This document shows positions 8,094-28,301 of a stretch of 64,000 bases of DNA, piece after piece. The DNA is from Fomitopsis serialis. Lineage: Eukaryota > Basidiomycota > Agaricomycetes > Polyporales > Fomitopsidaceae. The translations under genes were made by a program, and so were the position numbers. The stretch is taken from assembly GCF_022376445.1 (NCBI RefSeq), contig NW_025955043.1:107220-171219 (forward strand), in the 5' to 3' direction. The notes beneath the pieces are model-generated. The model was not told the DNA's origin. It saw nothing but the letters and a program-made list of their open reading frames with translations, and did no database searches. Each line of letters starts with the position of its first letter. Within the stretch, counting starts at the first letter, position 1.

Positions 8094-8444
8094 TGAGGCC
8101 ACATAACCTCCTTGTGTAGGCTCAGAGAAGCCCCAAATACCCCAGAAAATCATATTTCTGAGCACTCTGAAAGTGATGATGAAGCATATGAGGAAGAAGC
8201 TATTGTTATGGCAGCAGAAAGATCAGCCAAGACTACTCGTACAGCTAGGAGAGAAGTAATGGATCATGTCAGTATTCCACCAGCTAATTACAAGACCAAA
8301 GAACAATCAGCCAATAAATCCAGTAGTTCTACAAAAGCTGCTGATAGTGAAATTCCAACAGCTGTCAAACAATCTGTGAAGTCTTCTAGTAATAAAGAAG
8401 GTACAGATCAAACCTCAAAACTGGAGAAAACAACAGCCAATTGA
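8094..8444 (+). pseudogene. Gag-Pol linker, N-terminal part of pol frame
   Basis: Open from just after a TGA (8094-8096) to a TGA at 8442. It encodes a charged, low-complexity linker with EHSESDDEAYEEE and TTRTARREVMDH, the latter typical of the stretch between Gag and protease in Agaricomycete Gypsy polyproteins. If the inversion is undone, the gag frame enters this frame directly through that TGA. The frame ends early because an A4 run at about 8426-8430 appears to carry one extra A; beyond it the next frame continues as QPIDVHGPG. Confidence 0.7.
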
Positions 8445-8445
8445 T

Positions 8446-10686
8446 GTGCATGGGCCTGGTCCAGTTATTATAGATGATGATGCATTTATGGATGATGATA
8501 CTACTCATCCAGAAGGCCCACAGCCCAAATCCAACAAGCCTACAGTACAGAAGGATGCTAATAAACCAGCTCCATCTGTTAATAAACCAGAAGTCAAAAG
8601 AGTTCCCAGAAAATCAGATATTCAAGTTCATGTTGATACATCAGGAGTGTTGAGCAAAGTGCTGAGTACACCTATTACTCTAGCAGTAGGAGAGGTATTA
8701 GGAATATCCAAGGAAATGTCTCATCAATTACAAGAGGTACTGAAGCCCAAACAGCAGCCAAATTTGGTTGCATATTCATATAATACCAAGACTAGAGGAG
8801 CACTTATTAAATTGCCTATGATGTGTGATGGTCATCCATTCACAGCTATCATTGATACAGGTTCACAGCTCAATCTAGTCAACTCTAGACTTATTAAATC
8901 TGGAGTACTCAGAAGACCTGTTGACATGACAAAGAAAATTACTATATTTGATGCTAATGGAGGACACAAGACATTAAGTGGACTCATGCAAAAAGTAATA
9001 TTGCACTGTGAAGGAGATATGGCTCCTACAACAGTAAATGCATGGGTAACACAGGATGCTCCATTTGATTTCCTATTGGGTAGACCATGGCAAAGAGGAA
9101 ATCTAGTATCAATTGAAGAAAGAATTGATGGAACCTATATTGTATTCAGGCATAAAGAAACTGGGCAAGTTCAGTATGAGGTCCTAGTAGACCCAGCTGA
9201 TCAAGATCCTACAGGAGAATATAGTCCTGCAGTATGGCAAGCCATAGAGTCATTTGGTTTTGACTTTGAGCCAGATGGCAATGTTGGCACTTATCTAGCC
9301 AATGCATTCCCACAGAAGCTTACTAATGAAGGTGAAGAAGCATTTATTGGAATGACTATAGTACAAGAGGAGGTACAGCTACATTTTGAGTCACAAAACA
9401 CATTATTAGCCACTGAACTCAATGAGAAATGCATGCAAAAGCGCTCCATTAACGAAGTTGCCATAATCGACAAGGCCGAGCCTATCCCCGAGCCTTCGGG
9501 TACGGTAAGCACCCGAACCATCCTCGCCGCAACTCGCTTACCTCTTGCCAGCTCATCCCATGTACGAGAAAAGCCAGAAATATTTGGTAAGCGTGTTTTC
9601 ACTCGTGCTAATGCACTGATCGCGTTTCCGCAGCCCACAGATCTGGGAGAAAGTCGATGCAGTACATCGCTCGCACTCCCACTGACTCCGAGTGAATTAG
9701 CGCCCACGGAGCGATCCTCGAAAACCACCCAAGATAAAAGAAGTATAGCCTTGCAAAACAACAAAAGAGGGCCGGGTGCGTACGAGGTGAGTCTGGCGAG
9801 TCTCCTAACGTGTTCTGTCATGAAATCCGCAGATCCGAGCCGCTACAAAGGTGAGCCAGTCAATTTGCAGTATAGCTCAAACTACTCACCTACAAATACC
9901 CTCGAAATGAAGCTAGAAACGCGGTGTCCGACCAGCAGACTATCAGGTGAGCTCAGACGAGGTGAGACGAGCCTGACGCCTCGAAAATCTAGTCCTTATG
10001 CGACCATTTCAGACCTGACAAATTCACCGGGTATTCTGTGCCTGGGGATGATCCCAAACCGAAAAAGGTACGCTCTAACACGTTCTGATGCAGCAACTGA
10101 CCCCCAAAATGATGTAGGAGCTTCGTATGAGTGTTCTAGACATGTACGACACGCGCTACGAAGATCGCCGCTGCATGCGAACTCGCGGCAGTATTTTCTG
10201 CGCGTGGTAAGCACCCCAACTGACATCCGCGAGAACTTACAATCTTGTATCATAAACGCGCCATGTGTCATGCTCCGGGCATGCTATAAGAGTGCAAAGG
10301 TGAGTCCTGTACACTCGGACGAGCTGTTGTCTTGTTCACACCCTTTCTTTTCCGTTGCAGACATGTCCGCTTTTTTGCCAGTCGACTCTTCTCGCCCCGA
10401 CCTCGCCGGCTACCACTTGCACCCGCACCCCGTCGTCGCTGGGCGACACAACAACCCGAACACAATGCAATATGTCCTCCCTGCGCTGTACCCGTCAAAC
10501 ACCAACTACCTCCTGAGTCTTGGAGCTTTGCAGGTCTCGCATTTCACTGCAAAAGATGCTCTCGGCAACATCCTGGCCTCGTCCGATGGTGTAATCGAGT
10601 ACCCGCCTTACCAGACGACGCAAGGAGGGGATCTACCTTCACGATGCTACGGTTGTGTTCCACCGTGCAAACCAGGAGTTCGCTGA
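8446..10686 (+). pseudogene. Ty3 protease followed by GC-rich central domain
   Basis: A single 746-codon frame. Residues about 120-235 are a retropepsin-like protease: the catalytic AIIDTGSQLNLV is at about 8845-8880 (DTG at 8854-8862) and the partner motif DFLLGRPWQRGNL at about 9067. Up to about codon 330 the sequence is AT-rich and typical Gypsy. From about 9440 the composition turns GC-rich and the protein becomes unfamiliar, with basic and serine-rich stretches and a conserved-looking end (PDLAGYHLHPHPVVAGRHN, YVLPALYPSNTNYLLSLG). Splice-like gtaagc motifs occur, but the frame is open across them. The frame breaks at about 10622, where removing one G from the ggagggg run leads into the next open frame. 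Confidence 0.75.
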
Positions 10687-26273: not shown

Positions 26274-28139
26274 TGAGGTGGTTGTAGTACTGCTGAGATC
26301 TCGTAGATGTGCGTGAGCTGGGGCGTGTCGGTGGACCAGAACACGCGGTGAATCCGCCTTCGCCTGTCAGTGTCGCCTGGCGCTTGCCATCCGCTGTTCG
26401 GAAGCTGGTGGTCTGTGGACGAGAGTAATTAGTAGTTACGCTCGGGCCAGGGCCCTTGCCTGCTCGTTTCCACCCCTGGTCGCCCATGTCTGGGAGCGGT
26501 TCATCACCCCACGAGGTCACGAGGTGGCTCGCTCGTGCAGGGTGCATGCGGCCAGGGTCAGCCGGCGGGTGCGCGGGCAGGTCATCAGTGCGTCACGGGG
26601 GAGCAGCATCCTATGGTTAGCTTCCATAAACGAAGGGCAGTGGTGTTCCCAGGACGCATGCCCTGCCATCTCGCAGTTCACACACCAGCGCTTGCGCCCT
26701 GGAGGGACCTTGCACTTCTGGGTCATGTGTTCCGGGGACACACAGGTTCTGCACTTTGCGGTCTCCATGCAGTTGGAGGCCATATGGCCTGGCTCCAGAC
26801 GCTGGCATTTCATGCAGCGCCACGCCTCCTTGACCAGACGCCAGGTGTTCAGTCTTTGACCGAAGTACATGAGGCCATTGACGATGATGTCGTTGGCTCT
26901 CTTCGCACTACTGAACTTCGTGATAGCGTACGCGGTCTGTTGGTTCAGCTTTCGTTTGTCAATCAGTTTGATCCAATGGACCACCATTAGCTCCCGCTCG
27001 TTCCAGCCATTCTCTTTCTCGAGCAGTCTGTACGATTGCTCGCTCGGTACGAAGGACGTCGACACGTTCTGCCAAACTACAGCATAGTGGCGTGCTCGAA
27101 CGGTCGCTTCAAGGCCGAACTTGCCTGTGAAAGCATTCAAGTGCTTCTCAATCCTCAGCCAGTCGACCACCGCCTTGGAGGTTAGCTCGTACAGGATTCC
27201 CCCATTCTTGAGCTTTTGCGCAGTCAAAAACTTCGCCCCCTCGGGGACGATGATTCCCCCTCACTGGCCATCAATTCGAGGGCGAGGTTGGCCTTTGTGA
27301 CCAACTCCAGCTCAGTGAGAGGTGTCCCGTCCTCTCTCATTCTCGACTTTACGTTGATTAGCATCTGGCGTCCTCGTGTGCTCTGTTGCTGCATCGTCGA
27401 GGCATGCGCAGCGGGGCGCTGGTGCTGTATGGCCGCCGCGTACAAGGGTCATCCCCCCGCACCATCCATGTAGGCACCTCCGTTGCTCACAGGAGCAACA
27501 TGCTCGTGGTGCACGACCGGGGGAGGTGCCTTCAGCACCTCCTGTGTCTCTTTCAAGGCGCCTTGAAGGTCGCCTCGTAGTCCATTCACCGTCTCCAAAT
27601 CCTTTGCTAACTTCTTTTGAGACGCAGCAATCTTACGTACCTCTTCCGTGAGCCTCCCCAGCATCCCATTCAGCTCCGTGGTCGATTGCGCCTGCCTATC
27701 CACCATCTCTTCCAGGCGGCTAGCTTTCTCCTCGTTGAGTTCCCCTGGTTCAGCCTCGCTCTTCTCCGTAAGCTGCACGAGAATCGGACGCAGGTCGTCC
27801 AGGACCTTGGCGGTTGTCGTGGATAGCCTCTGCATAAGATGCGAACACGTAGATGGCCTCTCGTACCTGCGCCTGGTTGCTCGTCTCGGCGCAGAAGCGC
27901 AGGCCCTCTACCAGGGCGCCCACCGAGGGCAGGGTCTCTTCCGGGATCAGTGCTCGGCCCACTAGGACCTTGTACGCTTTATCGTACAAGTCCACCTTCT
28001 CTCTTTCCGTCTTCAGGTCCATCAGCGGCGCCGAGGCTGTGGCTCTCATGTTAGGTCACTCACTGGTGCTTTGTGTCGTCGGTGATGCCGCCGGTTTCGC
28101 TGTCTTAGACGTCGTCCCTCCCTTTGCGGAGTTCAACAT
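26254..28139 (-). pseudogene. LINE ORF1 (Gag-like, three zinc knuckles)
   Basis: Start ATG at 28139 (MLNSAKGGTT), TGA at 28056-28058 shortly after. The middle has a coiled-coil-like region (ELNEEKASRLEEMVDRQ). Three CCHC knuckles lie at about 26620-26780: CMKCQRLEPGHMASNC, CRTCVSPEHMTQKC and a third CVNCEMAGH...C. Further lesions: frameshift near 27838, TGA at 27449, frameshift near 27260 and TGA at 26517, after which coding sequence continues in another frame towards ORF2. Confidence 0.8.
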
Positions 28140-28289
28140 TGAGTCTGTGTAGCATAAGGTACCAGTAATATTGCCTAGAGAGCTTTCTGGAAGCTCCAGT
28201 TGCTGTCCTCACGTCCGTATACCCCTCCCGTCAGAGGTTCGGACCGTGGGAAAATTCGCCAGTGGTGAGCGTTAGAAGCAAAGAGGGAT

Positions 28290-28301
28290 CACTTGGACTT
28301 T
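28290..28301. repeat. LINE target-site duplication, 5' copy
   Basis: CACTTGGACTTT, the reverse complement of 18509-18520, at the 5' end of the LINE body. Confidence 0.85.

What the first reader, a model, noticed from the sequence alone, without database searches (positions are those of the whole stretch)
8094..28301. An 11.5-kb inversion split a Ty3 element nested in a LINE
Four independent signs agree. (1) The two LTRs (16785-18117 and 21155-22487) are in opposite orientation. (2) gag is on - at 19568-21049 and pol on + from 8094. (3) The LINE ORF2 breaks at 22488 on the - strand and its exact C-terminal continuation with (AAAC)n tail starts at 18118 on the + strand. (4) The LINE target duplication AAAGTCCAAGTG (18509-18520) recurs as its reverse complement at 28290-28301. 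All are explained by inverting 8094-19570. The breakpoints carry a 5-bp inverted microhomology, tgagg (8094-8098) and cctca (19566-19570).
Basis: partly seen in the sequence, partly recalled or inferred. Interest (0 to 1): 0.9.

Follow-up and report, generated by a model that had tools for sequence, protein, structure and literature searches.

The report
Fungal retrotransposon split by an inversion
In a wood-rotting fungus, a piece of DNA about 11.4 kb long flipped around and cut a recently inserted virus-like jumping element, which sat inside an older jumping element, into two halves; it is a clean example of an ordinary kind of genome damage.

Summary
The core of the finding holds. A Ty3-type LTR retrotransposon sits inside a LINE, and one inversion broke the Ty3 between gag and pol and turned pol, one LTR, the LINE 3' end and about 1 kb of flank around. 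New evidence: a homologous block on contig C667 (93-99% identical) lacks LINE, Ty3 and inversion and shows the flank uninverted. It moves the left breakpoint: 8094-8152 is flank, not pol, so the inverted segment is 8153-19571 (11,419 bp). The proposed tgagg/cctca microhomology is not at the left breakpoint; the real junctions share TCA, with one base changed at the right one. LINE continuity across the Ty3 site is direct in 8 of 8 LINE copies read. Gag-pol continuity is shown by a Fomitopsis protein in which the two pieces match residues 33-433 and 434-491. The LTRs differ at 3 of 1333 positions. The Ty3 has no clean target duplication (CCAC/CAGC). Likely mechanism: two double-strand breaks joined crosswise by end joining. 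An ordinary rearrangement, well resolved; no reads were available to confirm it.

The parts
8153..19571 (.). inverted segment, 11,419 bp
   Evidence: order and strand against C667 and six uninverted sites
8150..8152 (+). left breakpoint, TCA shared with the right breakpoint
19572..19574 (-). right breakpoint, TCA on the - strand; base 19571 differs from the six uninverted sites read
6344..8152 (+). left part of the broken host repeat (multi-copy, unclassified; its left limit was not established)
   Evidence: C667:442416-444223, 96%; further copies
18529..19571 (-). right part of the same host repeat, now inverted; many copies end at 18528-18530 (CACTTGCTGGGG)
21155..22487 (-). 5' LTR of the Ty3 element
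19572..21049 (-). gag piece of the Ty3 element (its reading frame now ends in flank DNA)
8153..16268 (+). pol piece: DUF4100 and protease, RT, RNase H, integrase
   Evidence: Pfam; homology
16785..18117 (+). 3' LTR of the Ty3 element
22488..28289 (-). LINE body, 5' end at 28289; RT and RNase H
18118..18508 (+). LINE 3' end with (AAAC)n tail, displaced by the inversion
18509..18520 (+). LINE target duplication, 3' copy
28290..28301 (-). LINE target duplication, 5' copy

Best explanation
Order of events: (i) a multi-copy host repeat stood at this place, as in the homologous block on C667 (shown by comparison); (ii) a LINE inserted beside its end, making a 12-bp duplication (shown from anatomy; the empty site itself was not seen); (iii) a Ty3 element inserted in the LINE ORF2 (shown: eight LINE copies are continuous there; its own duplication is not clean); (iv) two double-strand breaks, one in the host repeat and one in the Ty3 between gag and pol, were joined crosswise, inverting 8153-19571 (arrangement shown; break repair inferred). 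The joins share TCA and changed at most about one base, which fits end joining.
For: C667 carries 6344-8152 (+) at 442416-444223, directly followed by 19574-19365 (-) at 444221-444430, then 19352-18539 (-) at 444621-445434 and 28408-30256 (+) from 445432, with no LINE or Ty3 between. Six of six sites read in other copies of the repeat run through TCA into GTGA without a break. All 27 other matches to 8094-10000 stop at 8150 or 8152. Eight of 8 LINE copies read are continuous at the Ty3 site. In P0002, gag residues 81-487 match 33-433, the piece from 8154 matches 434-491, and the next piece 500-734; the C160 element shows the same order on one strand. LTRs 99.8% identical, against 82-85% for the four other long LTR copies in the genome.
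Against: No reads could be inspected. The Ty3 flanks do not form a clean target duplication (CCAC / CAGC, 2 of 4 equal). gag and the 5' part of pol are single-copy at the DNA level, so an uninterrupted copy of this Ty3 is not seen in this genome. C667 lacks 136 bp around the LINE target, so the pre-LINE site is not directly seen. Three shared bases at a break are weak evidence by themselves (343 of 20000 random pairs have 3 or more). Whether C667 is an allele or a duplicate is not settled.
Confidence: 0.9

Rival explanations
1. Assembly error: the two near-identical inverted LTRs or chimeric reads made a false inversion.
For: LTRs are 1333 bp and 99.8% identical; no reads were available; other parts of the window are duplicated elsewhere.
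Against: An LTR-driven error would switch inside the LTRs; the junctions lie between gag and pol, single-copy at the DNA level, and in the host repeat. Both junctions are reciprocal at the same TCA, which two independent chimeras would hardly give.
Confidence: 0.05
2. Three events: a solo LTR in the LINE; a one-LTR circle of the same element, opened between gag and pol and captured in the host repeat at TCA; then LTR-LTR recombination that flipped 18118-21154.
For: Flipping 18118-21154 on paper (coordinates only) would leave a solo LTR in the LINE and a pol-LTR-gag insert with TCA on both sides (coordinates).
Against: Needs three events after the LINE instead of two; the two LTRs are 99.8% identical while the four other long LTR copies are 82-85% (one 270-bp piece on C22 is 94%), so they most likely belong to one insertion.
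Confidence: 0.05

Closest known systems
Retrotransposon-associated inversions between human and chimpanzee (PMC2603318; start of abstract and two passages seen, one of them in the reference list)
   Different: Here the broken element is a young Ty3 nested in a LINE, the other breakpoint is in another repeat, and an uninverted homologous block in the same genome places the breakpoints.
Break-repair rearrangements of centromeric retrotransposons in maize CEN10 (PMC4806543; abstract and 12 passages seen)
   Same: Partial and chimeric retrotransposons and inversions, ascribed to double-strand break repair, in many cases with microhomology.
   Different: The inversions in the passages seen are large and inferred from markers and synteny; this one is small and resolved at both ends.
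Ty3-type gag-protease proteins of polypore fungi (P0002, Fomitopsis schrenkii; P0004, Wolfiporia cocos)
   Same: gag followed by DUF4100 in one protein; about 30-48% identity to the window's pieces.
   Different: In the window the two pieces are on opposite strands.

Membership tests
Ty3-type LTR retrotransposon (Metaviridae) | two near-identical LTRs with TG...CA ends | tested here: met
   TGTCAC...TTGACA, 3 differences in 1333
Ty3-type LTR retrotransposon (Metaviridae) | order protease, RT, RNase H, integrase | tested here: met
   Pfam order along 8380-16265; the protease matches are below their curated cut-offs, DUF4100, RT, RNase H and integrase above
Ty3-type LTR retrotransposon (Metaviridae) | short target duplication (4-6 bp, recalled) | tested here: not met
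   flanks CCAC / CAGC: 4 extra bases over the empty LINE site but only 2 of 4 equal. Usual but not required after later mutation, so the filing rests on the domain order
LINE (non-LTR retrotransposon) | RT, 3' tail of short repeats, target duplication | tested here: met
   RVT_1 8.8e-11, (AAAC)n tail, 12-bp duplication; RNase H just below cut-off; clade not determined
Simple inversion by end joining | two reciprocal junctions with little loss or gain | tested here: met
   at most about one base changed; the repair pathway itself is not testable here
Inversion by homologous recombination between inverted repeats | long inverted repeats at both breakpoints | tested here: not met
   only TCA is shared at the breakpoints; the window's self-comparison lists no inverted pair joining the two sites

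The most novel reading that the evidence does not exclude
The Ty3 halves arose by capture of an extrachromosomal one-LTR circle at a chromosomal break, near a solo LTR of the same element, followed by LTR-LTR inversion.
Probability: 0.05. Interest if true: 0.5.

Novelty: new member of a known kind. Interest (0 to 1): 0.3.

Why it matters
It is an ordered stack of four events (repeat, LINE, Ty3, inversion) with an uninverted homologue in the same genome. Such cases bound the age of a rearrangement (it is younger than a Ty3 insertion whose LTRs differ by 0.23%) and suggest that in this fungus inversions can arise inside repeat nests by end joining and not only by recombination between repeats. 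It also warns annotators: pieces of one element on opposite strands would be called two broken elements.

Tried and rejected
Rejected: left breakpoint 8094 and microhomology tgagg/cctca. Rejected: LTR-LTR recombination as the direct cause, since the junctions lie outside the LTRs. Led nowhere: Pfam on 9340-10683 (no family) and 10595-12208 (only UEV at E 0.0055, below cut-off), and a protein search with 10595-12208, which found a single protein, evidently this same locus. Literature: four searches (the third returned no paper); I used two papers by abstract and passages. I saw no report of this locus in those listings, but I did not search for the species by name and the library lacks most subscription journals. 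Allele or duplicate: colinearity with C667 runs from about window -26184 to 38296 and was not found beyond, in the stretches held (C667:406001-496000, C789 from 57220 on). Three Rpb2-type loci suggest that the assembly holds one haplotype, so I favour a duplicated block, but this is not settled. Failed calls for wrong reading frames: 6 and 35 (repeated as 39 without the bad piece).

Full report
Setting. The window is the last 64,000 bases of a 171,219-base contig (C789:107220-171219) of a 66-Mb assembly in 806 contigs. The one protein found with window 10595-12208 is a Fomitopsis serialis protein on a contig of the same length, 171,219; it aligns with 453 of 496 positions identical, most of the rest being two gaps as a gene model with introns would give. 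The host is therefore taken to be F. serialis, a polypore (Polyporales).

The observation. The two LTRs are real: 1333 bp, opposite strands, 3 differences. Pfam gives DUF4100 and (below cut-off) protease, then RT, RNase H and integrase on + between 8380 and 16265, the Ty3 order. The gag frame is on -. The LINE holds RT and RNase H (just below cut-off) on -. The 12-mer AAAGTCCAAGTG occurs once in the window, at 18509, and its reverse complement once, at 28290. Random pairs of sites with such a match within 3 bases: 3 of 200,000 (the window's own inverted repeats may contribute).

LINE continuity. Eight copies of the LINE elsewhere were read at the Ty3 site, and 8 of 8 (C16, C10, C110, C2, two in C246, C348, C55) run straight through; other copies listed were not read. 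The window has the same LINE on both sides, plus AC before one LTR and CA after the other: 4 extra bases, as a 4-bp target duplication would give, but the copies CCAC and CAGC agree at only 2 of 4 positions. With LTRs this young that is unexpected and remains unexplained. Five copies start exactly at the LINE base at 28289 (C16, C283, C221, C110, C55). The 3' ends of the six best other copies lie at 18507-18516.

The uninverted homologue. Contig C667 holds a colinear block, 93-99% identical in its longer pieces. There, window 6344-8152 on + is followed without a gap by 19574-19365 on -, then 19352-18539 on -, then 28408-30256 on +. LINE, Ty3 and inversion are absent. This is the order the inversion model predicts. 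C667 also lacks 136 bp next to the LINE target, so it is not a perfect empty site for the LINE. The flanking sequence is itself a repeat with many copies, and five more copies (C334, C148, C493, C299, C279) read through the same site; C493, C299 and C279 look like duplicates of one another, so the six sites are not all independent.

Breakpoints. A search with 8094-10000 found 27 places besides the window's own; all lie within 8094-8152 (24 end at 8152, 3 at 8150). In six of six sites read the flank runs through TCA and then GTGA; the window keeps TCA at 8150-8152 on the left, and has TCA then TTGA on the right. The two breakpoints thus share TCA, and base 19571 differs from the six sites. The inverted segment is 8153-19571, 11,419 bp. 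Three or more shared bases right at a break occur in 343 of 20,000 random pairs (1.7%), so TCA is suggestive only.

Gag-pol continuity. gag and the 5' part of pol each occur once in the genome at the DNA level, so I used proteins. In P0002 of Fomitopsis schrenkii the gag piece (residues 81-487 of 493) matches 33-433; the piece from window 8154 (residues 2-58) matches 434-491 with E 2.7e-5 (for these nine proteins only); the next piece matches 500-734. P0003 shows the same order (12-425; 440-521, E 0.004; 554-807). Of the other seven proteins compared, five (P0004, P0006, P0007, P0009, P0010) matched gag and the protease piece in this order without a significant, well-placed match to the short middle piece, and two (P0005, P0008) matched gag only. 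An element on C160, 71% identical in its RT stretch, has all three pieces in order on one strand (gag 24-472, middle 14-70, next 12-320).

Mechanism. Shown: order, orientation, junctions, near-identical LTRs. Inferred: that two double-strand breaks were joined crosswise by end joining, from the short shared TCA and the absence of long inverted repeats at both sites. Since the LTRs differ at 3 of 1333 positions, the Ty3 insertion is young and the inversion younger still; I give no years because I had no rate for this fungus.

Rivals. An assembly error would have to make two reciprocal junctions, each with one side in single-copy element sequence, at the same three bases. A circle-capture history needs more events, and the LTR identity (99.8%, against 82-85% for the four other long copies) favours a single insertion. 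Neither is excluded without reads or sibling strains.

Verdict. It is a well-resolved example of a known kind of event. Published parallels, seen as abstract and passages only, are PMC2603318 and PMC4806543.

Noticed in passing
from 606 bases left of the window (in L012) to window 1245, and window 1924-3775: Two 1852-bp copies, 100% identical, in opposite orientation 678 bp apart, each with an 8-bp duplication (CTTGTCCC; CTCTGAGT) and ends TAGTGCA/TGCACTA: hAT-like (label recalled). C667 lacks both; its site for the first copy differs by a few bases from a simple empty site.
   Followed up: partly
window 42496-64000: The two stretches searched (38000-47500 from 42496 on, and 56000-63900) match C76 at about 100%, but C76 is about 28 kb longer between them; 42495/42496 is also an edge in C81, C154, C44, C594 and C112. 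A recent large duplication or an array of long repeats.
   Followed up: partly
window 9340-13010: About 3.7 kb between the protease piece and the RT match of the Ty3 element with no family above cut-off; the C160 element has about 4.2 kb there, of which part matches (31% identity, E about 1e-9).
   Followed up: partly
window 33272-38079, - strand: Protein like ATP-dependent DNA helicases with PF14214/PF05970 (33272-36055; Helitron-type, label recalled) and DUF6570 (36766-38079).
   Followed up: no
G000:C3:96998-98264 (-) and 100469-101511 (+): A second pair of LTRs of this family in opposite orientation, 2.2 kb apart; the second is partial.
   Followed up: no
window 8413-8637 (residues 12 on of the 8380 frame) and P0002, P0004, P0009, P0010: DUF4100 (PF13352) lies between gag and protease in these fungal elements; a paper search for DUF4100 with retrotransposon returned none.
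   Followed up: no
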